Assembly: GCA_024867545.1 (NCBI GenBank)
Contig: JANFNE010000022.1
Span: forward strand, 682,001 to 746,000
Direction: 5' to 3'
DNA length: 64,000 nt
Source: Phytopythium helicoides
Lineage: Eukaryota > Oomycota > Peronosporomycetes > Pythiales > Pythiaceae
This document shows positions 2,649 through 43,900 of the stretch, in pieces. A program made the translations under genes and the position numbers. Below the pieces are notes generated by a model that was given only the letters and a program-made list of their open reading frames with translations, ran no database searches and was not told where the DNA came from. Within the stretch, counting starts at the first letter, position 1. Every line of letters starts with the position of its first letter.

Positions 2649-4201
2649 CTACTGATTCCTCTGAGCTGCGTCGAAGACCTCGTCGACTTGCTCGGCGATG
2701 ACACGCGCGATGTAGGCGTCGCCGACCGCATTCCAGACTGTACGCACACGGTCGACGAACCAGTCCATGGGCACGAGATAGCTAAAGGATGCGGGCATTG
2801 GTGAGGCAGGGTACACGGTCTGCCACACCTGAGTAGATGATGGCGAGGCTCGAGCTCGTGATTGGCGCCGTACCCAGCGACCCCAATAGCGAGATAAGCA
2901 AGATGAGCGACACCTGCCACCAGCCAAGGTCCAGATCGTTTTCTGCTGTGGCTACGAGGAACACCTTACGGCCACAAGGAAGTACATGGCCGCACCGTAC
3001 TTGTGTGCGCTGCAGCCGATGGTGGCGACGAAGTGGAAAAGACCTCGAGACACTTCGCGGGTCGCTTCGACGCAACGCAGGCGTCACGGGGAGTGTTGCC
3101 CATGGACGAAGCACACCCGAGCGTGAATAGAGCAGCTGGGATCATGGCGCGTATGTACGGAAATGGGTTCGTGAGGATCGCGAGATAGAGCGCAATAGGG
3201 CAGACTACCAGCTCCACAATCGTGACGGCGATGAGAAACCCGAGCAGCATAACGCCGACGTGGGTTGGCTGGACAAAGATCCCGCTACGAGTGAGAGAAC
3301 AGCCAGTGGGCTCCAGTCGATCAGCGTCTTGATGATCACAAAGAAGATGTGGTTCATCTGCATCAGCACCGCGAGCAGTAGACTTTGCTCACGTGTACTG
3401 ACCTTGACGGCGGCAGTGCCGAACACAACTGAGAAGCCGATGACACTCAGCAGTCTGCCGTCCTGGAAGCTCTCAAAAATGTCGGCGAGGATACCGCTGA
3501 TCTGGCTCGTCACAGATGACCCAGAGCGCATAGCAGAGTTGCCAAGCACAACACTTGTGAGGTCGATCACCTGAAGTTTCGTGCTCTTCTCAGAGCTCAC
3601 GGAGGAGCAGCGGATGATGCCAGTCGAGTCATTTGCGGCCCAGAATCTGCCGTCTCCGCATTGCACGCCCAGGAATCCCGTTGCAGCGGCACTAGATCCG
3701 TGCCCAACACTCGAGTGGAGCTGGCGGAGCACCATCGCGATCCCCATGGACAGCATCGCTGACATCAGCGACATCCCGATGAAGTACACGGCAGTGCCTG
3801 TTCCGATGATAGAGACCTTCCCTACGAGCACCGTATCTGCGACTCCAGTGATGAGGCTCGTAACGATCATGGGCATGCCGAAGCACTTGAGCATGTGAAG
3901 AAACATGACTCCAGAAAGGTTGACCAGTGCAGTCACATCTGTCGACACTTGGAGGCTCGACAGCAAGGCGCCGAGAAGTACGCCGAAGGAAGTCACGATG
4001 AGGATCAGTTCTGTCGGATCTCGCAGCACGGCACAGCGTCGTTCCTCACCAGCATACAAAGTTTCGGGGAGCATTGGAACCGACGGCTTTCGGTGCAACT
4101 CCGTGAAATGTCCAGTCCGATGGATTCGCTCGGCGTCGAAGATCCGCATCGTCATCGTGGCCATCGACTGGGAACAGCACGACGTCCGAGTTCGTCTTCA
4201 T
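2649..4201 (-). pseudogene. SLC1-type dicarboxylate/amino acid:cation symporter, inverted and frameshifted copy
   Basis: Homologue of the two plus-strand symporters downstream, on the opposite strand. The N-terminal half (from ATG 4201 or 4164) is open and has the family landmarks MLKCFGMPMIVTSLITGVAD, VGKVSIIGTGTAVYFIG, the cysteine-bearing outer loop, and SFQDGRLLSVIGFSVVFG. The C-terminal half carries conserved blocks in successive frames: LTNPFPYIRAMIPAALF, TLPVT, FLVATAENDLDLGWWQ, LGSLGTAPIT and MPASFSYLV, with at least five one-base shifts between about 3250 and 2810. This is more damage than in the sister copies (one break each), so true decay is plausible; clustered base errors are the alternative. 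If expressed intact it would be a plasma-membrane Na+-coupled carrier. Confidence 0.65.
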
Positions 4202-5961: not shown

Positions 5962-7659
5962 ATGGCAGGCATCGTGCTGCTCAACACCGGACCCGACCGT
6001 CGACCTCTCGGGCGAGGGCCACCACGGACACGATGGCCCCGACGTGATCACCCCCACCGAGTCGATCGGCATGCCAGGCGACTATACCCACCACGACGAT
6101 GACTACATGTACGCGCACGGACGCAAGATCGAAGACGCTGATCGGCTGTCCAAAGGGGGCGCGGGCACCCCCGAGCGATTCCTTCGCCGCCCCGAGGAGG
6201 CTCCCGCCGCGTATCCCGACCAAGAAGAGCGAAGCTGTGCCTTTCTGCGGCAGCCAACTGTGCAGATCTTGTTTGGGGCCTTCTTCGGCGTGCTTCTCGG
6301 CGCGCTGCTGTCGTCGCTTGGGGTTTCCAAGGACGTGAGTGCGCTCGTGAACCTGCCTGGCGCCATCTTCCTCCAAGTGCTCAAATGCTTCGTGATCCCC
6401 ATGATTTTCACGAGCCTCACAACAGGCGTCGCAGACCTCGTGCTGCTCGGAAAAGTCTCGGTTATCGGTACGCAAACCACCGCGTATTTCATCGGCTTCT
6501 CGACCGTCGCATCCGTCCTATCCATGGTGATCAGCATGTCACTGCGCACGTTACACCCAGACAGCGTACACTCGTCGATCGAAGAAGACACTGCACTTCT
6601 CAACGTCAAGTGCGCAGATGGCTCGGTTTGGGCCACCAACGGGACGACAGGCGTCATGACATGTTCATCAGTAATCAATGATGACTCCAGTGCAACCGAG
6701 GTGACGCTGCGAATGGTCGATCTGACAGGTGTCATTCTCGGAGACTCAACGGCGAACGCTGCCGCATCCATCACGACTCAGATCACCAGCATCCTTTACG
6801 AGTTGCTGCCGCAGAACATCTTCGCAAGTTTTCAAGATGGCACACTGCTGAGTGTAATCACGTTTTCGGTTGCTTTTGGCGCAGCGGCGGTCAAAGTTAG
6901 CCGTCGCGAGCACAGTCCGCTGCTTGCGGTACTATATCAGATGAACAAGGTCTTCTTCACGATCATCGGCGTCTGATTGATTTCAGCCCGATCTTCGTGT
7001 GCTCACTCGTCGCTGGATCGCTGTCAAGCCAGTCGCTCCTCGCTGAAGCCATCACACACGTCGGTATCATGATGCTCGGCTACTTCATCACGGTCTTTGT
7101 CTTCGAGTTCATCTTTCTCCCAGCCGTTCTGTGGTTCACGCTCCGAAAGAATCCATTCCCGTACATGCGAGCCATGATCCCAGCTGCCCTTTTCGCATTT
7201 GGGTGCTCGTCGTCTCTGGTGACCCTGCCAGTCACGCTTCGTTGCGTAGAGTCGTCCCGCGAGGTTTCGCGCCAGCTACTGCACTTTGTGCTCACGATTG
7301 GCTGCACCGCGCACAAGAATGGCTCTGCGATTTACTTTCCGGCAGCCATGGTGTTCCTGGTAGCAACCGCCGAGGAACAGCTTGAAATCGGTGGGGTCGA
7401 GGCTGCTCTGATTGTGATCGTCTCGATTCTCGGCTCTATCGGTGCGGCCCCTATCACCAACTCAAGTCTTGTGGTTATCTACTCCATTTGGGAAACGGTC
7501 TACCCAGGGGTTCCCATGCCGGCATCATTCAGCTATCTCGTGGCGATTGCGTGGTTTGTGGGCCGCTTCACCACCGTCTGCAACATCATTGGAGACACGT
7601 ACGTTGCGCGGATTATCGCCGAGCAAGTCGATGAGACCTACAGCATTGGGCAGGAGTAG
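5962..7659 (+). CDS. SLC1-type dicarboxylate/amino acid:cation symporter, copy 2
   Basis: Secondary carrier of the glutamate/neutral amino acid/dicarboxylate (SLC1) family in the plasma membrane. An N-terminal cytosolic tail ends in DVITPTESIG, shared with copy 3. Landmarks in order: LLGALLSSLGVSKDVSALV, FLQVLKCFVIPMIFTSLTTG, VIGTQTTAYFIG, an outer loop with two cysteines, SFQDGTLLSVITFSVAFGAA, FGCSSSLVTLPVTLRC (HP1 serine-rich loop), TIGCTAHKNGSAIYF (TM7), LGSIGAAPITNSSLV (HP2) and GRFTTVCNIIGDTYVARII (TM8). TM7 lacks the usual NMDGT. One base is missing near 6973, where TIIG should continue into LIDFSPIF; a possible second indel lies just after the ATG at 5962. Substrate cannot be told from sequence. 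Confidence 0.85.
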
Positions 7660-7861: not shown

Positions 7862-9533
7862 ATGCGTCCAGGCAGTAGTCAACCGCGCTTCGTGCTTTAC
7901 GAAAACTCCGAGGCCATCAACAGACATGGCGAGGATGTGATCACACCCACCGAGTCGATCGGCGTGCCTGAGCACTACACCGATGCAAATACGTACACTC
8001 ACCTGCGCAAGTTCGGTCGCGAGTCCGCCTCGGGGCTAGCTTCGCCGAATCGGTTCCTCCAGTCGGACAGAGCAGACAACGCGTACCCAGACTATCCGGA
8101 GGAAGATCGACGCTGCGCCTTTCTTCGCCAACCCACGACAATGATTCTCATTGGAGCCTTTGCTGGTGTGCTGTTTGGTATCTTGTTGTCAAGTCTCAAA
8201 GTTTCTTCAGATGTTACCGCGATTGTGAGTCTGCCGGGAAGCATCTTTCTCCAAGTCCTCAAGTGCTTTGTGATGCCCATGATCTTCACGAGCTTGACCA
8301 CCGGTGTCGCGGAAATCGTTGTCATCGGGAAGGTGTCTGTTATCGGCACCAAAACAGCTCTGTACTTCATTGGTCTCTCCACGGTTGCGGCGATTCTTTC
8401 GATGGGGATCGCCATGATGTTTCGAAACTTGCACCCAGATACAGTGACCTCACAGGTCGAGTCCAGCACAGCTTTTCTCAAGGTCAAGTGCGCCGACGGC
8501 AAGTTTTGGGCGGCCGATTCGAAAACTGGAGCGGTCAGCTGCACTTCGGCGACGAACACTGCATCTAGCAGCTCTGTCACTTTACAGATGGTTGATCTGA
8601 CGGGCGTGATCCTAGCAGATGCAACCGAGAGTGCTGCAACGTCTATCACGACTCAAATCACGAGCATTTTGTACGAGCTCTTGCCGATCAACATCTTTGC
8701 GAGCTTCCAGGACGGCACACTGCTCAGCGTGATCTCGTTCTCGCTCATCTTTGGCGCAGCTGCAGTCAAAGTTAGCTCCCGCGAGCACAGCCCATTGCTT
8801 GCTGTGCTCAATCAAATGAACAAAGTGTTCTTCATTGTCATCAAGAACCTGATCGACTGGAGTCCACTAGCCGTGGTGTCGCTCGTGGCTGGGTCGCTGT
8901 CGAGCCAGTCGCAGCTCGCATCGTCGATCACGCATGTGGGCATCATGATCCTCGGATACCTACTGTCGGTGCTTATCTTCGAGCTGGTGTTTCTTCCGTT
9001 CGTCATTTGGCTCGCAATCCGCAAGAATCCCGTTCCCGTACATGCGCGCCATGCTTCCCGCGGCGATGTTTGCGTTTGGCTGCGCTTCGTCCATCGCAAC
9101 CCTTCCCGTGACGCTGCGGTGCGTCGAGACGACGCACGAGGTGTCGCGTGGGCTGCTGCACTTCGTGGTGACAATTGGCTGCAGCGCACACAAGAATGGC
9201 GCGGCCATGTACTTCCCAGCGGCCGTGGTGTTCCTGGTGACGACGTCCGAGGAGCAGCTGTCGCTGGGCTGGTGGCAGCTGTCGCTCATCGTGTTCATCT
9301 CGCTGCTGGGGTCGTTGGGCACGGCGCCGATCACCAACTCGAGCCTGGTTGTCATCTACTCGGTGTGGCAGACCGTGTACCCGAGTGCGCCCATGCCCGC
9401 GTCCTTCAGCTACCTCGTGGCCATCGACTGGCTGCTCGACCGCTTCAGCACGGTCTGCAACGTCGTGGGCGACACGTACGTCGCGCGCATCATCGCCGAG
9501 GGCGTCGACGAGACCTACGACGTCCCGCATTAG
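7862..9533 (+). CDS. SLC1-type dicarboxylate/amino acid:cation symporter, copy 3
   Basis: Closest sister of copy 2 and the best preserved of the three. The ATG at 7862 opens a tail with GEDVITPTESIG, followed by the SLC1 order: LFGILLSSLKVSSDVTAIV, FLQVLKCFVMPMIFTSLTTG, VIGTKTALYFIG, a cysteine-bearing outer loop, SFQDGTLLSVISFSLIFGAA, NLIDWSPLAVVSLVAGS, FGCASSIATLPVTLRC, TIGCSAHKNGAAMYF, LGSLGTAPITNSSLV and DRFSTVCNVVGDTYVARII. The single frame break is near 9030, where one extra C turns the shared NPFPYMRAM into another frame; the remaining 490 bases to 9533 are open. The unusual TM7 motif AHKNG and the arginine after the TM8 NVxGD block are shared with copy 2. A local duplication best explains the cluster. 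Confidence 0.88.
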
Positions 9534-9642
9534 CATCCAGCCGCTCGGTAATGAAGCGCAGCATGTGTTGCCTTTCTCGATTTGCTTTCCCCCCTTGGCA
9601 AGTTGAAGTGATGGATACAGGTAGCTGAAGCAGTGACGCTGC

Positions 9643-9728
9643 CACGGTAAACCTGCGCGTGCATTTGCACCGCCCGCAGGCGACGAAGTCGTTGTCCTCC
9701 CAATAGCTAGGGACATGGTAGTGGAGTC
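9643..9728. repeat. Left terminal inverted repeat of the Fanzor element
   Basis: Starts at ACGGTAAACC and runs to GGTAGTGGAGTC. It pairs with the right end at 12046-12146 over nearly all of its length, with scattered mismatches and one gap near the middle. Confidence 0.8.
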
Positions 9729-9730
9729 GT

Positions 9731-9878
9731 AGCAGAAGAAGTTGTGATGCTAGTGAGGATTCGAACGAGAGATCACGCCGTTGGAGAGCGAAAGAGCGGT
9801 GACAGTATCCGCCCCCTTCTCTCTCCAACGGTGCGATCTCTCGATCAATTCCTCACTAGCATCACAACTTCTTCTGCT
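9731..9878. repeat. Long palindrome between element end and Fanzor start
   Basis: The left arm is 9731-9790 and the right arm 9819-9878, with a loop of about 28 bases. The outer 29 bases of each arm are perfectly complementary (AGCAGAAGAAGTTGTGATGC and on); the inner 30 bases pair with a few mismatches. It ends 11 bases before the ATG of the nuclease gene, so a transcript would start with or contain a strong hairpin. It may be a regulatory hairpin, a nested miniature element or a structural RNA. Confidence 0.85.
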
Positions 9879-9889
9879 CTGTCGCGATC

Positions 9890-12037
9890 ATGAGGGCGGT
9901 CGTTCGGCACGAGCGTCCGCCAGATGAAGATGACTCCATGCTTGGCGTTGACGGTGGTGGTAACCCAAACGCAGATGATCATCCAGCCGAGGAGCCCGTC
10001 CAACAAGGAGTGCGACGGAATCGGCGACCGCGTTTGCTGGCTCGAATCCAGAGGAGGTTCCGCGATGCGTTTGCCGTCGTGCGGGGGTTCGTGTTCGTGC
10101 ACACGTCGGACGAGCTCGTCTGCATGCGGGTCCGCCACTTCCTGCAGTTCCACTACGCCAACATCTTGTGGATGGTGCTGTCTGCTGCGGTGCACCGGCA
10201 GGAGATTCGTCAAGAGCGGCAGCTGGATGATCTCCTACGAGAGCTCGCAGCTGCAGTGCCGACCTCTGAGCGAGCACCACTGCAGACACGCCAGCTACTG
10301 GTCTCGCTGGCAGAGCTCGTGGAGCACGTCCTGTTCTTCAACATTCGCGACTACAGCCCGCTGCAGAATAAGCTGACACCCGGTCAGTGGCATGCGATGG
10401 ACGAGCTCTTCGGTGCCGAGTACAAGCGTGAGATCTCAGCCGGAGGAGAGCTTCAAGAAGACACCAGCTTTCACTCATGGTTTAAGATCAGGACGCGGCA
10501 GCCGGAGATGCCCATCCAGCGCACGTTGCAGGACCTCGCTGTGTTTCCCCACACCCAGACATGGCCAGTCAGCAGGCAAGATCATGAAGCTCGGGCTCGT
10601 GCGTATGCGAGGCGCGGTGAGTTTGCATCAGGGCTGGCGGCGATCAAAGATCAAAAGGCCACAGCGACCGACGTGCGGGACATATTGATGGGGTTCAACT
10701 CGTGGGGGGAGGCGAACCAACTCGCGTACGCTCGGTTCAATGAAGAGAGAGATGCCGACAAGGCCCAAGTGCTCGTCGAGAAAAAGCTCTTGCTGACTCG
10801 CTCGCGACGCTACCGCCTCTTTCCGACACGCGAGCAACGGCAGACACTAAGGCGCTTTATGGGGACGTGCAGAGCAACGCACAACATGGCGGTCAACTAC
10901 TTCCGAGCAACCGGCGACCACAACTCCGGTAGCCTTCAGAAGCTGTTTGTTAGTAAGAATCATCGCCAACCTGTCGTGTACCCAGAAGGTATTGCACCTC
11001 CACCAGCTTGGGTGCACGAGACGCCCCACAATTTGCGTTACAATGTGATGCGGAAGTTTCATTCATCTGTCAAGAGCTGCTTCACGAACCTGAGCCGCGG
11101 GAACATCAAACACTTCACGATGCGCTTCTCCAACAAGAAGCTTGACCCCAACTTCACGCTGTCAGAGGATGCCCAACGTGTCAGTATTCGTGAGGTTCCG
11201 CCTCCCGTTTCGTCGGCTCCAGGAACCAAGCCTCAGTTCTTCCTATCCATCACGGGTCTCAAGGACATTCGAGTGAAGATGGAGTCACACGTTGATATTG
11301 CCCACCAGATCGAGATTGTGCTCGACAATGGCTCCTACTTTGTCGTTATCCCAGAGACGGTCGAGCCGGGACCGTATTCGGCGCCTCGGTCGTGTGTCGC
11401 GATTGATCCGGGTATCAAAGCATTTGCGACTGGCATCGACTTGCAGGGCAAGGTGTTGGAGTTTGGGCGAGGCACGAAGGACTACTTGAGCTCTCTTCGA
11501 CAGCGGAAGGCGCGAGCACAGAGTGTGATTGATCGATTTCACAACCAGAAAGGCAGAGCGACGCGGACCCAGTTCCGCGCGTACGCGAGATCCAAGCGTG
11601 AGTTTGCCTTTTGCTGTGCCAAAATGAAGAATTGCGTCAAGGAGCTTCACTACCAGACAGCGTCGGCCCTCGTCAAGAGCTACGACGTCATTCTCCTGCC
11701 GCGCTTTCAGACCCAACGCATGATTCTCCGCAGCTCGCGACGTACACACGCCTTCAACACTGCAATACTGAGCTTGAACCACTACGCGTTTCGTCAATTG
11801 CTGCGTGCCAAGTGTCAGCGGATGGGGAAGGGGCTCGTGGTGTGCTCCGAGATGTACACGTCCAGGACGTGTGCGCATTGTGAGCGGGTACACATGACAA
11901 TGCGGGATGAAGACATTTTCACGTGCCCGACCTGCTCGTTTACTGCCGGCCGAGACGAACACGCGGCCTTCAACATTTTGCGCTACGTGAGTGCAGGTGC
12001 ACTGGAGGTGTTTTCCGAAGGAGAAGGGAGCGAGTAA
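9890..12037 (+). CDS. Fanzor (eukaryotic TnpB-like RNA-guided nuclease)
   Basis: A single open frame of 715 codons, ATG to TAA, with no intron and no frameshift. The C-terminal half is a TnpB/Fanzor nuclease: an N-terminal WED-like start RRYRLFPTREQRQTLRRFMG, then RuvC-I VAIDPGIKAFATGID (Asp506), a helical insert, a RuvC-II strand YDVILLPRF (598-606) where the usual Glu is absent, then CSEMYTSRTC with Glu654 in the place of the alternative catalytic Glu known in Fanzor and IS607-type TnpB. A four-cysteine zinc ribbon follows (C661, C664, C679, C682), then RuvC-III GRDEHAAFNIL (Asp689). All three acidic residues are present. Family knowledge: such proteins cut DNA guided by an RNA from the element's right end. 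The first 300 residues are an extension I cannot assign. The stop is 8 bases before the right repeat. Confidence 0.9.
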   Translation: MRAVVRHERPPDEDDSMLGVDGGGNPNADDHPAEEPVQQGVRRNRRPRLLARIQRRFRDAFAVVRGFVFVHTSDELVCMRVRHFLQFHYANILWMVLSAAVHRQEIRQERQLDDLLRELAAAVPTSERAPLQTRQLLVSLAELVEHVLFFNIRDYSPLQNKLTPGQWHAMDELFGAEYKREISAGGELQEDTSFHSWFKIRTRQPEMPIQRTLQDLAVFPHTQTWPVSRQDHEARARAYARRGEFASGLAAIKDQKATATDVRDILMGFNSWGEANQLAYARFNEERDADKAQVLVEKKLLLTRSRRYRLFPTREQRQTLRRFMGTCRATHNMAVNYFRATGDHNSGSLQKLFVSKNHRQPVVYPEGIAPPPAWVHETPHNLRYNVMRKFHSSVKSCFTNLSRGNIKHFTMRFSNKKLDPNFTLSEDAQRVSIREVPPPVSSAPGTKPQFFLSITGLKDIRVKMESHVDIAHQIEIVLDNGSYFVVIPETVEPGPYSAPRSCVAIDPGIKAFATGIDLQGKVLEFGRGTKDYLSSLRQRKARAQSVIDRFHNQKGRATRTQFRAYARSKREFAFCCAKMKNCVKELHYQTASALVKSYDVILLPRFQTQRMILRSSRRTHAFNTAILSLNHYAFRQLLRAKCQRMGKGLVVCSEMYTSRTCAHCERVHMTMRDEDIFTCPTCSFTAGRDEHAAFNILRYVSAGALEVFSEGEGSE

Positions 12038-12045
12038 ATGAGAGC

Positions 12046-12146
12046 GGACTCCACCACCATGTCCCTAGCTACTGGGGGGACAACGACGAGAGCGAGGGGC
12101 TTCGTTGCCTGCGGGCGGTGCAAGTGCACGCGTAGGTTTACCGTAG
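12046..12146. repeat. Right terminal inverted repeat, candidate guide-RNA (omegaRNA) region
   Basis: Reverse complement of the left end, with an insertion of about 11 bases (GAGAGCGAGGGGC area). It begins 8 bases after the nuclease stop codon. In TnpB and Fanzor systems the guide RNA overlaps the end of the gene and the right end of the element, and the guide lies just outside it. By that model the guide here would start at about 12147. The RNA itself is inference. Confidence 0.6.
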
Positions 12147-12262
12147 CAAAAAAGTCGTGCAATGTCTATAAAAGTAATTACTGCTTTCTTCCCAGCCCAT
12201 ATCCGCAACACTAGCCAGCAACCCAGCCTGCTATTTTGCAAGCATCATCTTCAGATACGACA

Positions 12263-12347
12263 TGCACGTGGCGACCGAGGCGCCGGGCGAGGCCGCGCGC
12301 CGCGCGCCGCCCGCGTTCTTCGACTGCAACATCTGCCTGGACGCGTC
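12263..12347 (+). pseudogene. RNF5/RNF185-like RING E3 gene, truncated after the first RING cysteines
   Basis: The ATG at 12263 opens a short basic/acidic N-terminus leading to PPAFFDCNICLDAS, the start of an RNF5/RNF185-type RING domain (ER-membrane ubiquitin ligase family). At codon 28-29 the frame runs straight into a solo Fanzor-element end, and no further RING sequence (CGHLFCW block or membrane anchor) follows in the next kilobase. About 110 bases upstream look like a 5' leader. It is either a gene cut by insertion and rearrangement or a fragment captured between two element ends. Confidence 0.6.
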
Positions 12348-12387
12348 GCCTACGGGCGGTGTCAGTGCACGCGTAGGTTTACCGTAG
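12348..12387 (+). repeat. Solo right end of the Fanzor element family
   Basis: The stretch matches the last 40 bases of the element's right repeat in the same orientation (GCACGCGTAGGTTTACCGTA and preceding bases), with a few differences. There is no matching left end or nuclease sequence next to it. Confidence 0.75.
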
Positions 12388-29065: not shown

Positions 29066-29163
29066 GTCGCCCGCAGCAGCAGCAGTAGTAGCGTATGACA
29101 CAGTAGGTAGGACAACGAGTATTATCATGGTATATCAATAATGGTGGCATGTAAACGCTAACG
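29066..29163. other. MYB 3' region up to the Fanzor fragment
   Basis: Short spacer with a GCA-repeat tail after the MYB stop. Nothing else was seen. Confidence 0.4.
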
Positions 29164-29400
29164 CTACCGTAAACCAACGCGTGCACTTGCACCGCCCGCA
29201 GGCGACGAAGCTCCTCAGTGACTCTCGCCGTTGTCCCCCTAGTAGCTAGGGACATGGTGGTGGAGTCCTCGTTCACTGCCTTCACCCTCGGAAAACACCT
29301 CCAGTGCGCCGGCGCTAACGTAGCGCAAAATGTTGAAGGCCGCGTGCTCGTCTCGGCCGGCAGTAAACGAGCAAGTTGGGCACGTGAATACGTCTTCGTC
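29164..29400 (-). mobile_element. 5'-truncated Fanzor element copy (right end plus 3' coding end)
   Basis: On the minus strand this reads the last 55 or so codons of the Fanzor gene and then the right terminal repeat. Decoded, it keeps DEDVFTCPTCSFTAGRDEHA and FNILRYVSAGALEVFSEGEG, almost identical in protein to the intact copy at 9890-12037 although many third codon positions differ. The stop codon is changed (GGCAGTGAACGA where the intact copy ends GAGTAA). The right repeat (29164-29270) is full length. No left end or other nuclease sequence is near. Confidence 0.85.
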
Positions 29401-29578
29401 GGTGGCATTACCTTCAAGTTGAAGTGAGCTGCAACGTGAAATGGAATGGCTACATGGCTACAGGGGTACTTGACGTTGTACCCATTGGTTACGGATGGTT
29501 TCGCGAACTTGAAGAGGCGCAGGCGCCAGATCGCGACTTCCGGGTGCTCTCTGTGGGCTTCTGACTGCCGCTGCAGTC

Positions 29579-31958: not shown

Positions 31959-34900
31959 TTACATGGCATGGGGATCATCGTCCGAGGCCCACAAAGGGAT
32001 TCCAAGGGCAATGTGACTGCTAGTAGCTGTTGTCAGATCAGCGTGTTGCAAGTTGATGCCTGCTGTTGCTGGGTCAAACGCAACGTCCACATGATCTACG
32101 ATGACGGATGCATTTAGTCTTGACTGGAAGGGGGAAAGCGATGGAATAATCGCAAGCGGAACGTTTGAGTACGCCGACTGTGGATGGCTATCAGAATCGA
32201 TATCTCTACCAACGCAAAGCAAGCGGCATGTCGGAAGTGGGTGGATCGCTGTCAGGGCCTCCGTGTCTGACGGGTTGAGCTCCAGAAGAACAAGTCCTTC
32301 GACTACCAGTCCTTCCATGTCGATATCCCCCTCCAGTTGGCCTGCAACCAACACAAATTTCAAATCTTGAGCGGTCAAGCTACAGTGGATGGCACTATGG
32401 CATTTGAACTCTTGAACCAGTCTTCGTACATCGTGGACTCCTGCGAGATCCACAGCACGTGATCTTGACCCGCGGTTTGATTCCGCCAACCATTCCGAAA
32501 GCAGAGCAAAACGGTACGCAATTAGCAGAGCAAACGCAGCTACGGGCACTAGAGCTGATGGCCACAACGGTCGAGGTGAAAATTGGTCCAAAGCAGATGA
32601 AATCCATGCATGTGGAACATATCCTCTGACGAGGCATGCGGCCGCAGTGGCATCAGCGTGAGTATCAGACTGAGAGCGGTGTCTATCGATTGCTGACTGG
32701 ACGGCCGAGTAAATCAACTGGAAAAATCGCGTCTGAGCCTCAACCTCAGCACTCAATGACCACCAAGGTGGGGAGCAAGGCGAGGGGTTCGACAACATTG
32801 CTACAGTACACGCATTGACAGCGTCGGCGGTGTGAGCAAGAGCATCAAAAACCCTCAATACTCGGTCCAAGCAGTAGCTCTTAGCGGCCCGAGACAATCC
32901 AAAAGGCTGAGTATCGACCATCCGCAAAAGTGGTTGGCAAACAAGCGTCATGCCTGCAGCTATCGCTTGGGATACGATAAGGTAGCTCTCTGTGTCCTCA
33001 TCGATGCACACATCTTTGCCTGGGGATTCACTTGGCACATCTTCTGTACACAATCGATGAGGCAATAACGGGAGTTTGCTGCTCATAATTCGGAAAGCAA
33101 CAGGCAATGAACAAACAAGCAGCCATCGAGGTACGGCTAGTAAAGCATGATCACTCACAACCCGTGAAACGAGTGATACAATGCGATCAAAATGTTTCGC
33201 ATCCAGAAGGTGAATGGCAAAGGCAAATTCATGGGTTGTTGATGATGAAGACGTAGTTACAAGTTCCACGAGGCGATCGTAGTAGTTGCTGGAAGCAGCT
33301 ACGTTGGCTGACCACCACCACGTCAACAGAGCTGATTCATCTACAGCAGATCGAAGCACCCTTTTTGCGTTTTCTTTCGACGAGTAGATTAAAACGAAGT
33401 GGGTGTTGCAATGACTGATGGTTTCCCTTGCCTTCCACGATCTAAGGATGGATCCACATCTCTGATGAGTTTTACTGTCTGACTCCTTGTTCACCATCGT
33501 GCATCAATCAAGCTTGATGCAGAGACGTTTAGGAGAGTGCTACTGCTTGATTGTCTCTCTTGCTGGTACCCATGCAGTTTTGATGCCACCTAGCACACAC
33601 CAGCGATTCAAAGGCATAGCCATCTCACTTGGAAATAAAAAACTGGTGAGAAGGAGCCGTGCAAGTCCATCACTAATTGGGTCATTTTCTGAGACAGCAC
33701 CAAAGAGACTGAAGTCCGCAAGAGCGTCAGCAATATACTTCACACGCACAAAGTTGCCATTCGTTGTGTTCGTTGAGATACCAGTTGAGAGATCCATTTG
33801 GCGTAAAGATGCGCGTCGAGCTCGCCTAATACCTTGTGAGGCTAAAAGGCGCTCAAGCTCCCGTCGGCGCTGTGACTTGACAGCTTTCCAGTCGCCCCAG
33901 TAGTCCTCCACAATAGTGCATAATGCGGATAACGCATTTTCCAGACTCGCTGTTTCTTCCTGGAGCCTTGTCGGAATATTACTCGGATGTGTATCTCTAG
34001 CTAATGGATGTCGGCGTAATATAGACGAGGGTATCGACAACGGACGAAACGAAGAAGGCGTTTGTGGTGCCGGTAAAGAAGCTGGTCGACTTGTTGAAGA
34101 TTCAAAACAGTTCATAAGCAAAGCACCGAGTCGAACTTTGCGGCGGAATCGATCAACAAGAGATCCATTTGCTGGAGGAATTTGCTCCTGCTGCTCTTTG
34201 ATTGAAAAAGGAGTTTCACTACGTTTCTTCGCAGGGTTACCTACATTGTCATGCATTAGCTCGACGCTACTAAGCCACGACACTGCTTGCTGTAAAAACT
34301 CAATACAATTCGGCGTTTGATCGTCTGCTTCGTCAATACAGTTATGCACCGCTTGAAGAAATCGAAAGGTGGTTTTGTGTGCCTCAGTAAGAAGTTCACT
34401 TTCGACTGACGTGAGAATACTGTGGCCAATAAAAACTGCCTCTGAATAAGTTTTGCTCTTTAGATTATCCTCGTGCTCAGGATTTTGTTGGTTTCGAAGA
34501 CTGGCGAGTTGATCCCCAACTCGTTGCTCCAACCACCTATTGTTATGCGTGTACAAGCATGAGGATGACTTGGGCAATAGATATGGTAGAGACGAAATGC
34601 ATCGAATAGCCCTAGCGATGCACTCTCCTGCAGGATGATATACTGAGAGAGCCTGGTCAGCGCCGTGTCGCTCCATTCTCAATCGCTCGCAGCTCTGCTT
34701 CAATTGCCGCTCATGTAACTCTATCATGCTGAGCGTATCAGCAAGGTCAGAGTAGGGCTCGAGCGTGCCAACAAGCGACAAATGTGGCATAAAAGGTTTT
34801 CGCGTGGTCGGTCCTTCAAGTTGGGTAGTTGCTTTGCCGCGAAGTACCGTCCACAGCTTCTCACGGCTTTCCGTGACCACTGCGCAGCAATCGGCAGCAA

Positions 34901-37900
34901 CTCGCTCGGCGTCACGAACAGATCGTTGAATTTGACTTCCACAAGAATCATCCGATGACAACCAAATACGCGCGAAAAACTCATTTCCAAGTGTTGTTTG
35001 GTCTACTTGCATGTCGTAGAAGGCAAGTTGGTGAATCAAGCGATGCCTTGTTGAGTGAGATATAGACATGGAAGCCACAGCAACGATGCGAAACTCTAAC
35101 TTCCGAGCTCTCGTGTGGGTAGCCATTGAAATATGGTTGCGATGGTGATCTCTTGCTTGCGCGGGAATATTGCCAGGATTTGCCGTGGCCATGGCAGCCA
35201 AGGCTGCCATGTTTTCCACTCGACGATCAATACTATTGCGACGAGCATAACGTTGCGCACTCGTTGAAGACGAAGTTGAGACAGACGAGACTGTTGAATT
35301 CTCACCAGTCAATACTTGCACTCCGCCAAGTGCCCCAGCAATGGAGGCAATTGAAACTGATGCAGTGCGGCGATTTGAGCGGCGTGAGTTCTTTTCTGTG
35401 TGATGGGACAGATAATTTTCGATACCCAGGGTTTCAAGTACGCCCATCTCGCCTAAGTGATGGCTCTTACCATTTGTTGCGACTGCGGATAAATGGTTCT
35501 AAAAGCTTGAGTAGTCGCTCACTTGGTTCAAAATCAAGCAGCAGTACAGGTTTTTCGTGACGTAGGGCCTCGGAAAGCTGTGTTTGGAGATCAGGCGCTT
35601 GGCAAGACACAACGACACCCAAAGGCATGCTGGTATTCGAGGTTGCGCTTTTGTGGCGAACTTGGGCGCTTGTGCGTCCATTGTCTTGCCGAACCCGTAT
35701 TCCACCACTTTTCCTGTCGCGCACTGGACTATCATTTTCCCAAAGAACGGATTGCCCTGAGAAACAACGGACCAAGTATCGCTGTACAACCCCCGAACTA
35801 TCGACATATACTGGTAGTCGATCGAGAACACTGTCTCCAGCCACGAGGCTATCATACAAAGGCCCATTTACAAAAGGAAGCTCGGCGGTCATGATGAGTC
35901 TTGATAGAAAACGATTTAGCCCATTGGGAGTGATATCCTTCTCCAATGTTTCGGGCACTAACCAATCCGTTGAAAAAGGAGGATCCAAGGGTACTTCTTC
36001 GTCCATTAGATTCTGGAGAATACATTGGTGCCATTTTTCAGGATTGTATTGCCTTAAAAACCAGTAGTTTGAGTGAACAGCTTTGAGAATCGTTTCTCGA
36101 AGCAGGCTGCTCCAGGATTGAGCATTTCGACGCTTTTCAGCCTCAATCCGCCATGTCTCGACTAATCCAGTAGCATAGGGGAGTACTTGATGCCATTGCG
36201 ACGCGAAAATTGCCAGTGTTTGGCGTTCATTTTCAAGTTCGCAGAGCTTCATGCCCCTCTCTTCTTTTTTTGCGCGTACGCACCACGCAATGTAGTCATT
36301 TTGCCATGCCGGCGTCTGCTCCTGAATATTCTGTGCTATCAAGACTGTGGCATATACTATACCCTCAACAGAGGAGATCTCTTTTATCTCGAGGTCAAGA
36401 ATTCTACGCCTGGCTGCGACTCGGGGAGCATATCACTCGCGAGTAGCTCAATGTGGTAAATTGCGTTTTCCAGTCGAGAAACCGCCAACTGTTCTCGATC
36501 GACAGGTGTGCTGCCATTGCGTGATAAGATTGAGTCGAAAAGGCCAAGAAGCACTCAACGGAGTGTTCCGCTACAATAGGCACCGATTCATCGTTAAGAG
36601 TCATCATGCAGTGGTGAATAGACTGAAATGTATCGATAGGAATGGCAGGAGAACATGTGGCACTAACTGTGGTTGAAAATTCTTGACGAACTTGTTCAGC
36701 GATAGCCACGATAATCTCGTCAGCCTCGTTACTTGATAAATCAAATTCCAGCCACGAACAGTTCGGTCGAGAGCGCAGTGAAGACAATATCAAGTAAGGG
36801 TGGTAGTTGCTAAGAAGATGCGAGCTTTTGACGCGTATACTGAGCAAGCTGTTTCGTACCAAGCATATACGAAGATTACAATGCATCAGGGCACACATTT
36901 CTTGCATTAGCTCGAATTCGGATGCAACCTCCATTCTGCGCTTCTCTTGAATGACGGCCATGAGTAAAGTATCTCTCAACGTAGATGCCTGTTCGTCGAG
37001 AACAACTGATGGAATCTGCTTGAGACTCAGCTGGTCGATAAACGAGAGTAGCAGGGTGACACCGTCAGAAGTGCTATCTGCATTTATCTCTGGATGAGCT
37101 TCAGAATTGCGTCTAGCGTTGGAAATCTTGAGCGCAACATCATCCCAGTCAATCAAAAGCACTATCCGCTGTTTATTAACGCAAATTTGGTGCAAAACAT
37201 CTATCAAAAGCTCACGAACTCTTTCACCTTGTTCACCAACAGCGTGAATGCTTTTGGAGGCGAGCTTCGGAAACGGGGCACTGTTAGAAAAGAATGCGAG
37301 TTCAATTACTTGGAACCCGCAGACATCACACGCTAAGGTAGTCATGCGTGACATGATTGAAGCTCCACGACAGGTCGACATAACAAGTACTGATGACGCT
37401 TCAAGAGCGTTGATGAGATGCAAACTCTGAGTGAGAAGTGGACCCCTAAGCACTAGTTTTAGGTTCATGGTATCATAATTACCCGATTGGCGTTGAGAAT
37501 GGACGGCTCGCTTTGATTGCGATCTAGATGGGTCCGCAGTTTTCATGCTTATCACCATGTCAGCAATATTATCCCTAATCAAATATTGTTGGCTCGCAGC
37601 CGGCAGAAGGTACGTTTCGGAGTTTCGCTTTGAGCGAGAGAGCGTCCCGACAGACGGAGCAGAAGACGCTAGTGCCGTTAATACATCTTTGAGACGGAGT
37701 GCTTGGTCAGCGTATCGAGCAGAAAAGCTCGCCAATCGGAAAGAAAAGTAAGCAGCCGGAACAGACACAGGTAGGGTGCGCTCGTTTTGAAGCGCTGCAC
37801 TAAAATACTTTTCGCTGAGCGCTCGCACCACCACCCAGAGTTTCTTCGTCACGCATTCTCGATCGTCAATGTTGGTGTTTTGCCTTTCTACTGCACCAGG

Positions 37901-40900
37901 AGGTTCCCCAATCGGCAAAGGTGGCCAGTTGATAAGGAACACATTTTGTAGCTCGCTGAGCCAGCATTGATGAAGGCGCCCAAGGTCCACAAGAGATACT
38001 TCGCGCTTTTCGCTAGCAAGACTGCTCTGCGAAGAGACAAGTTCATGGGCAAATACTAGTGTACGAGACAAAATTGTGTCCAAATGGTGCCAACTAAAGA
38101 TCAGTGAGCTAGATACGCTGGCCCGTGCGCTTGGTGAAATACAGTCAACGCCCTGTGCTTGTAATGAGCTCCGAAGGGAAGACACTTCGCTCAACCACTC
38201 CGCACTTGCTCGTAGGATGACCTCTACGGCAGGGAGGGCTATAGTTGGAGTTGAGGCATTATATTGTTGATCTTTTGCATTCGCTTTGCTGTCGTCAAAA
38301 CCAAAGTAGGTGTTGTACTTGACACGAAAAATGCTAAACAAGTCTTTTTGGCTGTACTCGGGTGCGTGCAGTACAACGAAGTGTCGCAGTAGTCGAGATC
38401 CTACTGTCGAGAATAATCTGTTGGGGGACCAGTCAGGCTCGGGCAGCCTTGCGGCTCCACCAATATGCTTTTCTATCGGGAGGAACGTACCTCGCTCCGA
38501 ACAATAGCATATTCGGTGGTCAAGGATTGATCGAAGAACCTCTATTTTTGTGACCGCAGTGTTGTTTTCGTCATATGCCAGTGAGATGTCATCAACAAAC
38601 ACAAATGTGTACGATGCCGGTGGGGCGAATAACTTTTGTTCCTCTCTCGCACGGTTGCGGGTGTACGGGTATGTGCCGTTGTCACTGGTCAAGCTCGCAA
38701 ACCACGAGTCTGGCATTAGCATCCAGTCGAGAACACCGTTTGCCTGTCGTTGGTCCAATGCGCAATCGATCTTTGTTTCCAAGTTTTGGGCTAGATCATG
38801 CATTGTCAAGATAAGCCGCATTAGAGCCGACTTCCCACTTGCAGCCGACCCAGTTATAAGAAACGAAACTCCTGATTGGACCAGCCGATAGCACATACGT
38901 AAGAGTGGTACAGCAACTGGCTGGAGTGCAATGAACTGCGAGGCCGCAGGGTCAAATAGATAGCGTGGAATTTGAGAGTCTCCATTCACCTGCTGTGCCA
39001 CACCAGACGAAGATGTCATTGCCATCCAATCGTCATTTGCGACGACAGAGTCACTCGAAAATCTTGATGCATCGTAAAGACTCCCGATTGCGTCACTTAG
39101 GTGCTGCAGCTCAACGGATTCTTTTACTTTGGCGCGCAGGTAGAATTCTAATTTGTGCTGCATCGAATGACTTAGATGTCCACCAAATCCCCACAGCAAA
39201 GCAAATGCAACAAGCTTAGCTATTGTTGTTACTGACGGCAATGTATCATCGATTTTCCACGACTGATTTTGCGGAAAGCACCATAACGCCACGAGGTTTA
39301 GCGCGTTAAAGGTTAAGTGATTCAACGTTAAGCCGTCTAACGCTTGCTTCGAGTCGCCTGAAGAATCAGTGGCTGCCTTTTCCGCCTCAATAAATGCTAC
39401 GAAGACGTTTGAAAGCAAGAAGTCGACATATCCGAATAGGATAGCGAGACGTCTCGACCCGAAGTTTCCCACCTCGTCGTCTTTGTCATCTTCATCTTCG
39501 TCTTCATCTACTACAGTCAACGAGGCGGTGACTCCAAGTCGAAGCTGACAATTACGCTTCCATGCAGATACAATATCTTGTCTCGTTATGCATGCTGGAT
39601 AAATATAAATGGCAGCACAAGCTACAAGTGCCACCGGTGATAGATTCCGGAGATCCACAGATTCAAAAAGTATGCGATTCACACATTTCGAATCTATTGA
39701 AAGACGTTGCGATACACGTGATGAAGGGTCAAGTTCATCTTGATTGTTGCTTCCTAGTGATTCTACATGTTCAAGCAGCACTGGATCCTCGAGAGACCCA
39801 TCAATCAACACCCAGCGTGGTGGAGTGGCATCATAACTGGTGTCTGGTTCCGTTGCTGAAAAATATTCTTGTGCGGCGTGCTGCTTGATCATTTCAAAGA
39901 GCTTCATACGTGGTAGAGCCCTGGATGGAATAATGGTGAGGGCTGATACTTCACTGCAATTTCCTCTCGGAAGAGTCCGTGGTGAAGCTCCAAGAAATCC
40001 AACATTTCTTCTTTCATTGTTGACGCTAGAGCTAACCCAGTAAGTGCACGATGTAGCACCGTGATCGCTGTTGTCTTGCCGCTGCCACATGGTCCATAAA
40101 TAATCACTGAATTGGAAGCAGCTTAGAGCACTCCATATATCCATGATTCGTTCTAACTGATGCGATCGGGCTTCTTGTGGTTGAAATCCAGATTCCTCGA
40201 GGCAGATCGAGACCGCATTGGCAATAGCATCCTCAGTTTCGCCGTATTTTAGCCGAAGTGAAGCGGGAGACTTAGATGCAAGTGGGAGTAGTGCATCAAC
40301 AAGATTCGATAGTCTATTCAGTTGATTGCTCTTGAGAGTACCTCTAGCGCAACGCGAACCAAAGAGATTTTCGATAACTTCAATGAACGCAATGCGAAAC
40401 ACAGTCTCATCGATTCGTCGCTCGTGCATGCTGGTATCGAGATTTTCCCCGCCTTCTTTTTGCGTCGAGCCTGTTGATAGCTCTTTCTTGACGTAAGACG
40501 GCAAAGATAAAGATGCTCTTTTATCAGCTACATTTTCGGTAAGTGGTGTCAGTAGCACTTGATAGGTGGCGCGGATGCGCATGGCTCCACCTACAACGCT
40601 TGGTACAATACTATGAACTGCGACTCCACACGTTTCTTCAAATCTGCAAGTAGAAGCGGCAAGGGCCTCAAACACAGCTACAGCTCCTGTACGAGCACAC
40701 TGCTCGCGAGAGTATCCATAGGGCAGCATAAGGCATTCAAACAGAAAGTCGATGGGTGGTAAAAGGACTGCTATTGGTCGGAAATGATACTGAAGGGTGT
40801 CCAACAGGCCAGATTCATTGAGCGCAACTTGCGTTGGAAACGAGATAATGATAGCAGGAGATAGTGATGGAACGCACAAAGCCGTAATTCCTGCCGCCGC

Positions 40901-43900
40901 GGTGGGGCTTCGATGTGTTTGAATGTGATGAATGATATTTTCATGCATGCGCTGCTGAATTTCCCGCCCCAGCTTGTCAACATTGTCCAAGATCAGCAAC
41001 GCGTTCAGCGCTATTGCAGCCTCGATGTGGTGTTCCAATGTACTATGCAGATCTTGATCGTGAGTTTGCCCTGTCGAACAGTTCATTTTGAGCAGTGGGA
41101 CCATCATCAATTGTGTTAGTGAAGCAAGAAGTGATCGGGGAGCCCAAGTATTGTTGGATCTTTCATTGTGAAGTGAGAGCATAGCTGCAGGGGTTGACAA
41201 CTGAGGTCGGAGCGCGCTAAATAGCGTAAATGCACATCGCTGGGTCAGTGGTGATATGATTGGGACACGGCCCCAACCCATGAACTCGCGGCCAACAGCA
41301 AGCTGGATGTCTGCAATCTCCACGCACATGTCAACGCCTTCCAAGCTTTGTTGGGTAGCTTCTTGAATTGCGGTGCTAAGATCAACCGAGAGCTCAAGTC
41401 TCGTCACCTTTGGCGCTACTCGCGCACTCGTTGTCGATGATGTGCCACTTGGTGGCACTAAATGGCAAAGCTGCACTTTGTACTGTAGTGACCAGAAGTG
41501 AAGAGCTTCTTCTTCTCGACAAGTTTCTAACATGGAAAGTATATGATCAGTCACGTCCACATGGTGCCGGAGCAAAAGTATTAAATTGTCAAGATTTAAT
41601 AAAACTCGAGTCGCCATCGAGCTGCCGATGCCTTCGTTCAAAAGCTTCGTGAAGTGGCAAATACGAGCCATGTGTGAATTTCGTAATTCTTTGAGCCGTC
41701 GAACATGCTCAAGTCCTCGAATGCCGTTATGTCGTGCCCACCTAGCGTCTATTTCGTGTGTGAATCGATAAAGCGACGCAAGCACAATTGATTGTGGTAG
41801 AAGCTGCTCCAGTGACGATCGTGGCGCCTCACAATGCTCCTCACTGTCAACGCCAAATGCGTCATAATTCGAAAAACTCCACCGTAAGGCTGTCTTGGTG
41901 TTTGTCTTCACCATCAACAGCATTTCTTCCTCAATACGAGACAGCCAGAACTGGGCTCGACCTATCTTCGTAACTGGCATTCGGAACACCCAAGGTGCTG
42001 CGGAGGGAATCGGACTCTGCCTTGTATCTAGAATACCATCAACGACAATTGATGAGGTGCCACTGTCGGTGATGTGGATACTATCACTTGTGGGTGCACC
42101 TTCAGCTTCTAGCTCGTAGTGTGGACTGCACCGCATAATACGAAATCGGCTGACGTGAGGGAAGCAAGTTGTGAGTACACGATGGAACTGTGCGATATCC
42201 TGGTCGTGTGTTAGCAGATATAGCAAATCCAAATCGCTGACAAGATGGAGGCGCGGAGATTTGGTGCGCACCATACGCAAGTATCCACGAATAAGCGCCA
42301 TGCCTTGTTCGCAACTTGTTACTTGGAAATCAAAGTCGAAATCTTCAAAGCCCTTGACGATTTCATCAAGTGAGCAACTTCGCCTCTTGGAGCGCCTGCG
42401 ATCATCAATGTCAAAACCTGTTGTACCAGTGGCATCAGATGGTGCTTTCAAGGTTCCAGTTGCTCGTTTATTGCCCAAGATCCCGCGAGCTTTTAAACTA
42501 GCAACCGTATTACCCTCTGGGTTCACAGGGACAGCCTTCACTAGTGATCGAGCAAAGAAAATGCGACGCATGCAGTCCGACCAGCCCTGGCTCGCACCAA
42601 GAAGGGCCTTCCACATTGCTTGGTCGATATCATCAGTGGCGACGTTGGCGACAAGTTTTTGGAGGCTGATTGCGTATTCCTCGACGTCATGAAGCTTGAG
42701 CACATCAAAGAGTGGCAACCACTTTTTCTGAAACTGCAATAAATACTCGCATACGGCAACGTGCCGCTCAATTAATGCAAACAACTGTACACACGCTTGT
42801 AGCTCCGGGTTTTGTTGATACAGACACAACTTCACATCCATCTGAATGTCGTCGAGTTCTCGTAGTGCTGTGTCCACTCCGTCACATCGTACAACATAGC
42901 TTTCCTCACACAGAACCACTCGTATACGGTCAACTCGTTCTCTAGCTCGTTCCAACAAGACATGTAGTCGGGCCTCGACAATACATTCGTCAAAGAATTC
43001 CATGAGCTTTTCTTTTGTACCCGACAAAACTTCGTCGCGCAGCATCGTCGAAAGAGCAACGTCATTGCGAGCCACATCAATGTGTACTAGACCGCAAAGT
43101 TTTTCCCAATGTCTATCAGCGAATGATCCACCATTGATGGCCTGAAATACTTTGATGTTCATTGCTACTTCATCAATGCTCATGCGGAATGCACCGATAA
43201 GCTCATGGTCCGGTGTAGCAAAGCCTGTAGGGGACGAAGAAGTGGCATTGCCAAAAAGCGCCGACGACTTTATCAACAAGGAAGAAAGTCGATATATCCG
43301 TGAAGAAGATGTTGTCAAACGCTTTCGAAAGAGCTTGACACGATCAAGAATAAACCCCGGATGCACTTGCACGATGGGAGTAGCAAACCATTTCGTTCGA
43401 AGAGCCGTCCAAGACGTAAACCATTGACGTAGCTCTAGCGCAGTGATGACGTACTGCAATAGCAACTCTGTCGGCAGTGTCTCATCGTCTCGCTTCGAAC
43501 TAGCGGTGAGTCGTCGTCGTGCACGTTTGAGTGTCGAGACCCATTGGTCACTTGGCATCTCGCTGACCATTCGGTGTTCCCGATCGTACGCTAAGTAAAG
43601 TGCCACAACGCCTCCTCGCTCTATGTCGAGCTCCACGAGCTCTTCAAGTCGATTCACTACTTCAACTCGTGCGTCACCGGGCTCTGATGCTGGCGTCTTG
43701 TCCGTCTCAATTCCCGTCGGGATTGTGGCAAACAGTTCCAAGATGCTCTGAAGTTCGTCGCGGATATGGTCCTCGGTTTTGGTTGTGAGATCTTCAAGAC
43801 TACGGCGATGGACTCCATTGCGATCATGCACTTTTTCGAGGCATAAAATCAACGTCTCATACAGTGAATCCCAGGTCACCTCGAGCTTGTGGATCGTGTT

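What the first reader, a model, noticed from the sequence alone, without database searches (positions are those of the whole stretch)
9643..12146. Intact Fanzor RNA-guided nuclease on an inverted-repeat element
Seen: one open 715-codon frame with RuvC Asp506, Glu654 (in CSEMYTSRTC) and Asp689, plus a four-Cys zinc ribbon, framed by 86-101 bp inverted repeats. Known: Fanzors are eukaryotic TnpB homologues that cut DNA with an element-encoded guide RNA, and occur as passengers of eukaryotic transposons. Inferred: the element is recent or under selection, because this frame is unbroken while many neighbouring genes show frameshifts.
Basis: partly seen in the sequence, partly recalled or inferred. 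Interest (0 to 1): 0.9.

Follow-up and report, generated by a model that had tools for sequence, protein, structure and literature searches.

The report
Fanzor copy with a borrowed guide
This stretch of a eukaryotic genome encodes an intact Fanzor protein, predicted to be an RNA-guided DNA-cutting enzyme, and its tail, which likely encodes the guide RNA, is nearly identical to that of a sister copy 106 kb away together with about 200 letters of that sister's neighbouring gene, so it was likely copied from there by DNA-break repair.

Summary
The Fanzor is real. The 715-codon frame matches TnpB/Fanzor profiles, carries the Fanzor fingerprints (DPG with Asp506, displaced Glu654, Asp689, four Cys), and its modelled C-terminal part folds like solved TnpB and mimivirus Fanzor2. 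The inverted repeats are not terminal repeats of the element: both arms are copies of one ~100-bp right end (RE) that follows the stop codon. The left arm is the RE of an ORF-less mini-copy lying head to head with this one; of the two other full-length copies, one has only a degenerate trace there and one nothing.

The full-length copies are old (dS 0.33-0.38 to copy 3) but constrained (dN/dS 0.13-0.17). The RE changes at roughly a fifth of the synonymous rate, which fits a guide-RNA scaffold; covariation and unusual folding stability were not found.

New here: this copy's RE plus 197 bp of a RING-finger gene match copy 2 on the same contig, where that gene continues through its RING domain. 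The block stops at a 44-bp leftover of an older RE. The likely reading is break repair templated by copy 2, which would have handed this copy copy 2's guide. RNA, activity and sequencing reads were not available.

The parts
9640..9728 (-).
9731..9878 (.). Palindrome: inverted left-end piece (9731-9792) facing this copy's own left end (9817-9878), 62-nt arms, 90% complementary, just upstream of the start codon
   Evidence: folds as one hairpin, z -14.7, 0 of 200 shuffles as stable
9802..9889 (+). Remaining left end (88 bp; about 165 bp are shared by copies 2 and 3)
9890..12037 (+). Fanzor ORF, 715 aa: residues from about 300 on with TnpB-like fold; D506, E654, D689; zinc ribbon C661, C664, C679, C682
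12047..12148 (+). Right end (RE), predicted scaffold of the guide RNA, ending GTAGCA
   Evidence: Conserved after the stop in the six copies; boundary fixed to about 2 nt by the C34 paralogue of copy 3's flank; 7 of 100 differences to copy 3 against 133 of 502 synonymous sites
12149..12163 (+). Predicted guide (length by analogy with SpuFz1, 14-15 nt), identical to that of copy 2
   Evidence: Position next to the RE; length from PMC10432273 passages; untested
12149..12345 (+). Host DNA shared with copy 2: upstream flank and first 28 codons of a RING-finger gene, cut short here
   Evidence: No mismatch in 12149-12345; two places in the genome; RING domain at copy 2; junction
12344..12387 (+). 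44-bp leftover of an older RE, 91% identical to the RE above
29163..29463 (-). 5'-truncated copy of the same family with its RE (29163-29268) and a coding remnant with a stop (29272-29463)

Best explanation
This is a eukaryotic element that encodes an intact Fanzor, predicted to be an RNA-guided DNA nuclease whose guide RNA is likely transcribed from the ~100-nt right end after its stop codon, and this copy's right end with 197 bp of host sequence, nearly identical to copy 2, was likely acquired by break repair templated on copy 2. Working model: the protein binds a transcript of the RE (scaffold) that runs on into the flanking DNA (guide) and cuts DNA matching the guide (inferred from the family, untested here). 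This copy once had its own RE, of which 44 bp remain at 12344-12387. A break inside that RE was likely repaired from copy 2, 106 kb away on the same contig: copying ran through copy 2's RE into the start of the RING gene, and the new end was joined to the leftover. The copy would thereby have exchanged its guide for copy 2's. The left 'inverted repeat' is the RE of an ORF-less mini-copy in the opposite orientation. Shown directly: the protein's fingerprints, the mosaic identity, the shared host flank at two places only, the leftover RE. Inferred: the break and its repair, RNA expression, binding and cutting, and what made the break.
For: Protein. RE after the stop in six copies, constrained against synonymous sites. 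Conserved sequence of about 118-185 bp right after the stop in three other Fanzor groups of the genome. Mosaic of copies 1 and 2: mismatches 82 of 849, 26 of 1379, 5 of 27, 1 of 90 and 1 of 202 from 5' to 3', the last one at 12346 past the junction; changepoint log-likelihood gain 39.7, reached by 0 of 2000 shuffles. Direction copy 2 to copy 1: the RING gene goes on through its RING domain at copy 2 and breaks off after 28 codons here. The block ends at an RE leftover although only 8 RE places are listed in 49 Mb, which an insertion at random would hardly hit.
Against: No compensatory change in 27 predicted RE pairs and no unusual folding stability (z 0.36), so the scaffold rests on position and conservation. 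Rate heterogeneity along the ORF is not confined to copies 1 and 2: copies 2 and 3 also show a changepoint (gain 8.2, reached by 1 of 300 shuffles; copies 1 and 3: 15 of 300). Unconverted patches (11353-11392, 12028-12049) mean more than one event. No guide was shown to match the broken RE. No reads to exclude misassembly. This copy's leader is rearranged into a hairpin and copy 2 has lost a zinc-ribbon Cys, so either may be inactive.
Confidence: 0.68

Rival explanations
1. The tail of copy 1 arose by ordinary replication template switching, non-targeted gene conversion or a small duplication between two similar sequences on one contig; Fanzor cutting had no part in it.
For: The two loci lie on one contig and share long similarity; the junction has about 2 bp of overlap, which template switching and end joining both give; no guide is known to match the broken RE.
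Against: The exchange begins around and ends inside the RE of the recipient, as expected of a break there; one event cannot show a bias.
Confidence: 0.45
2. Ordinary DNA transposon with terminal inverted repeats moved by a transposase in trans; Fanzor is a passenger.
For: Inverted repeats do frame this copy; Fanzor1 elements with TIRs and TA duplications are known, also in Pythium ultimum (PMC3627910, passages).
Against: Copy 3 has no left arm and copy 2 a degenerate one with C-terminal coding sequence; a fuzzy search for the RE end in the 1.5 kb left of each copy found it in copy 1 only. No transposase profile in the 30 flanking and window frames scanned; no genome-wide search for DDE transposases was made.
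Confidence: 0.12
3. Misassembly: the shared tail is a chimera or a collapsed repeat.
For: Both loci are on one contig and similar over 2.5 kb; no reads at hand.
Against: A chimera would not be expected to stop at an RE leftover of different sequence (91%); 26 mismatches in 10651-12029 and 5 in 12030-12056 show that the two loci are separately assembled.
Confidence: 0.1
4. Copy 1 is a transposition product of copy 2 that read through its right end into the flank (3' transduction) and landed by chance beside an RE piece; its 5' half was later exchanged with another copy.
For: Flank carried from copy 2.
Against: Landing at one of about 8 RE places in 49 Mb is improbable, and the 5' half of copy 1 is as far from copy 2 as from copy 3 (dS 0.28 and 0.33).
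Confidence: 0.1

Closest known systems
SpuFz1 / Spu-1 elements of Spizellomyces punctatus and their ORF-less 'ghost' loci (PMC10432273: sections on diversity and Discussion read, other passages seen)
   Same: Fanzor ORF followed by a conserved right end that encodes the guide-RNA scaffold there; ORF-less derivatives that keep the ends; multiple copies with intact ORFs
   Different: Spu-1 has about 30-nt terminal inverted repeats and many copies; here no terminal inverted repeat common to the copies, three full-length copies, and a right end with flank apparently copied from another locus
GtFz1, NlovFz2, MmeFz2 loci (PMC10432273, Discussion)
   Same: Fanzor loci reported to lack inverted repeats and a clear transposase association
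   Different: Not compared by sequence here
Fanzor1 elements of Pythium ultimum and Phytophthora, some in Mariner elements (PMC3627910, passages)
   Same: Fanzor1 families in oomycetes; several families per genome
   Different: The Mariner ones have TIRs and TA duplications; whether this host is an oomycete, or this family one of those, was not established
Mimivirus Fanzor2 (9b0l) and ISDra2 TnpB (8h1j, 8exa)
   Different: This protein has about 300 further N-terminal residues that the model does not resolve; canonical TnpB has its glutamate at another place
TnpB cut-and-copy and gene drive of insertion sequences (PMC11870625, abstract; PMC10432273, Discussion)
   Same: The logic of a guide that records the flank and of copying by break repair
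   Different: Bacterial, with TnpA and at the same site; here an exchange between two loci of a eukaryote is inferred from sequence alone

Membership tests
Fanzor (eukaryotic TnpB superfamily) | TnpB-type RuvC nuclease with zinc ribbon | tested here: met
Fanzor (eukaryotic TnpB superfamily) | DPG in RuvC1 and displaced glutamate (fingerprints given in PMC10711439, passages) | tested here: met
   IDPG at D506 and E654 before the zinc ribbon, both invariant in 8 of 8 aligned frames of the genome; where TnpB has its usual E-D-L this protein reads P-R-F (alignment)
Fanzor (eukaryotic TnpB superfamily) | Encoded in a eukaryotic or eukaryotic-virus genome | tested here: met
   Neighbours include dynein heavy chain and IFT57; species not named
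Fanzor (eukaryotic TnpB superfamily) | Guide RNA from the right end | tested here: inconclusive
   Constrained RE in the right place, but no covariation, ordinary folding energy, no RNA data
Fanzor (eukaryotic TnpB superfamily) | RNA-guided DNA cutting | not testable with these tools
   Needs protein and RNA
Fanzor1 (as against Fanzor2) | No IS607 serine transposase with the element | tested here: met
   PF00239: 0 matches in the genome, found in 10 of 14 control genomes
Fanzor1 (as against Fanzor2) | Large protein (about 600-800 residues; PMC10711439 passages) | tested here: met
   715 residues
Fanzor1 (as against Fanzor2) | Place in a tree of named Fanzors | not tested
   No named Fanzor1 sequences at hand; two searches found no relatives
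TIR DNA transposon | Terminal inverted repeats shared by the copies | tested here: not met
   Intact left arm in 1 of 3 full-length copies
TIR DNA transposon | Target-site duplication | tested here: inconclusive
   None seen by eye; left boundary uncertain; no clean empty site
Inter-copy gene conversion | Tract of raised identity with a sharp change, against a diverged background | tested here: met
   (0 of 2000 shuffles), with the caveat that copies 2 and 3 also show weaker heterogeneity (1 of 300)
Inter-copy gene conversion | Break made by Fanzor itself | not testable with these tools
   No guide or target motif known

The most novel reading that the evidence does not exclude
A Fanzor family that has outlived its transposase: it persists and spreads in a eukaryotic genome by RNA-guided cutting and copying between its own copies, each repair able to swap the guide, and copy 1 is a guide exchange caught in the sequence. 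That would give a biological role to Fanzor cutting and explain why each single copy stays under purifying selection.
Probability: 0.17. Interest if true: 0.85.

Novelty: new member of a known kind. Interest (0 to 1): 0.52.

Why it matters
The biological role of Fanzor cutting is stated to be unknown (PMC10432273, Discussion). Three full-length copies that each look constrained, one of them with a right end and flank that came from another copy, make the cut-and-copy idea testable in a eukaryote: one can ask whether right ends and guides are exchanged among copies more often than the rest of the element. It also warns that inverted repeats around a Fanzor can be two right ends and not transposon termini.

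Tried and rejected
Inverted repeats as TIRs: rejected on copies 2 and 3. Covariation in the RE: 0 of 27 pairs; folding energy not unusual. Relatives among predicted proteins, with the single protein and with an alignment of 8: none at E <= 0.001, though only the 7999 and 7998 candidates sharing most words were scored, so no outside tree. Viral contigs with the single protein: none. With a pattern of the displaced-Glu motif: 8 stretches, long TnpB/Fanzor-like frames in 7, five of them near-identical; two of the 7 read DCG in place of DPG. Rfam: 0 matches in the window at gathering scores. RE model over 17 held sources: 10 rows, of which one in a different Fanzor family was weak (12.9 bits, E 0.07). 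Empty site of copy 3: its flanks each gave one short partial match elsewhere; the C34 paralogue fixes the right boundary to about 2 nt and gives no clean empty site. A possible target motif CACT at the left ends of copies 2 and 3, seen by eye, is not claimed. Solved Fanzor1 structures did not appear among the rows shown; nothing is concluded from that. Transposase near the copies: none among 30 frames scanned (20 in the window; 10 beside copies 2 and 3); genome-wide only the serine recombinase family was searched. Literature searches; by title and abstract start the listing (15 of 17 papers shown) has no paper on gene conversion of Fanzor elements; one search failed.

Full report

THE INVERTED REPEATS. 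The genome (G000, 49 Mb, 100 contigs) holds three full-length copies: copy 1 (the window), copy 2 at C16:798331-800472 and copy 3 at C21:351035-353179. Four shorter pieces of the same family are listed: on C29, on C33, on C16:711272 (window 29272-29463), and an inverted C-terminal fragment at C16:798040 just left of copy 2. An RE of about 100 bp follows the stop, or the coding remnant, in six of these seven; the seventh, beside copy 2, runs into a degenerate RE that the search did not list. The RE search listed 8 places: these six, the inverted one at 9640-9728 and the 44-bp piece at 12344-12387. A pattern search of the RE core with up to 3 mismatches found 7 and no hit of its reversed control. 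Read in its own direction, the left arm is preceded by a left-end piece, and together they form a copy that kept the left end and the RE and lost the ORF, like the 'ghost' loci described for Spu-1 (PMC10432273, passages). Facing this copy's own left end it makes a palindrome with 62-nt arms that folds as one hairpin (z -14.7, 0 of 200 shuffles as stable). Copy 3 has no left arm, and a fuzzy search for the RE end within 1.5 kb to the left found it in copy 1 only.

CONSTRAINT. Pairwise dN/dS is 0.17 (copies 1-2), 0.13 (1-3) and 0.15 (2-3), with dS 0.13, 0.33 and 0.38. Changes private to one copy, counted only where a single base of a codon changed and the other two copies agree, are 19 synonymous to 6 replacement (copy 1), 28 to 16 (copy 2) and 97 to 38 (copy 3). 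Such changes may predate each insertion, so they do not prove that each copy is selected where it sits. Copy 2 has lost one zinc-ribbon cysteine (C664Y). The RE differs at 7 of 100 sites between copies 1 and 3 and between 2 and 3, against 133 of 502 and 148 of 500 synonymous sites (P 7e-6 and 3e-7). In the three truncated copies compared with copy 1, gaps set aside, the RE differs at 24 of 299 sites and the coding remnant at 85 of 649 (P 0.03, counts). That fits an RNA scaffold. Against it, none of 27 predicted pairs shows a compensatory change and the fold is no better than shuffles (z 0.36). Three other Fanzor groups of the genome also show conserved sequence of about 118-185 bp right after the stop (83-96% identity).

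THE BORROWED TAIL. Along the ungapped columns of copies 1 and 2 the mismatches are 82 of 849 (9802-10650), 26 of 1379 (10651-12029), 5 of 27 (12030-12056), 1 of 90 (12057-12146) and 1 of 202 (12147-12348); the last is at 12346, one base past the junction. The best single changepoint (gain 39.7) was reached by 0 of 2000 shuffles. Heterogeneity is not unique to this pair: copies 2 and 3 have a changepoint of gain 8.2 reached by 1 of 300 shuffles, copies 1 and 3 one of 4.9 reached by 15 of 300 (all). Identity runs past the element into host DNA: 12149-12345 is the upstream flank and first 28 codons of a RING-finger gene. At copy 2 the gene continues through its RING domain (75 residues from three exons, zf-C3HC4_2 1.5e-11); here it breaks off. 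The block is listed at two places in the genome. It ends where the 44-bp RE leftover begins, with 2 bp of overlap. The simplest account is that copy 1 had its own RE, suffered a break in it, and was repaired from copy 2 by copying through the RE into the flank, followed by joining to the leftover. If the RE is a guide-RNA gene, copy 1 now carries copy 2's guide. Patches at 11353-11392 and 12028-12049, where copy 1 was not converted or was changed again, show that the history is not one single event.

HOW IT WOULD WORK. From the family: the protein binds RNA made from the RE, uses the flanking bases as guide and cuts matching DNA beside a short motif (shown for SpuFz1 and others, PMC10432273 passages; not shown here). 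For TnpB, cutting the site that lacks the element lets the element copy itself by homologous repair (PMC10432273, Discussion; PMC11870625, abstract). The exchange here is of that general kind, repair between copies, but nothing shows that Fanzor made the break, and no guide was found that matches the broken RE.

NOVELTY. A new member of a known kind. Fanzor loci without inverted repeats or clear transposase, and ORF-less derivatives, are already described (PMC10432273). Replacement of a right end and flank by another copy's was not seen in the parts of papers I read (PMC3627910, PMC10711439, PMC10432273, PMC11423790: passages, the third also two sections) or in the listings; most subscription papers are outside that library.

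LIMITS. One assembly, no reads, no RNA, no named relatives. Genome search counts are lower bounds by the tool's own statement. Copy 1's hairpin leader and copy 2's lost cysteine mean that either may be silent or inactive.

Noticed in passing
window 7862-9533: An SDF (sodium:dicarboxylate symporter) gene just left of the Fanzor copy changes frame at about 9040; two more SDF frames lie at 3208-4164 (-) and 6044-6973 (+).
   Followed up: partly
window 29163-29463: A truncated copy of the same Fanzor family, with its right end, lies between a Myb-domain gene and an IFT57 gene.
   Followed up: partly
window 9731-9878: A nearly perfect 62-nt-arm hairpin sits in the leader of the Fanzor ORF; if transcribed it would be a long double-stranded RNA.
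   Followed up: partly
L006, L007, L008, L015, L019, L025: The genome holds at least three further Fanzor groups with six long open frames of 651-761 aa (stop to stop), all with DPG, each group with its own conserved right end.
   Followed up: partly
L002 (copy 2), residue 664: The full-length copy 2 has lost one of the four zinc-ribbon cysteines (C664Y) while its frame stays open.
   Followed up: no
window 32000-46000: GC drops from about 0.6 to 0.47-0.50 over a block that includes a 2631-aa frame with dynein heavy chain matches.
   Followed up: no
L003 near 3860-3915 and C16:627884-627937: A 54-bp piece just outside copy 3's left end recurs at 94% elsewhere; it contains an inverted motif and may be a small repeat element.
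   Followed up: no
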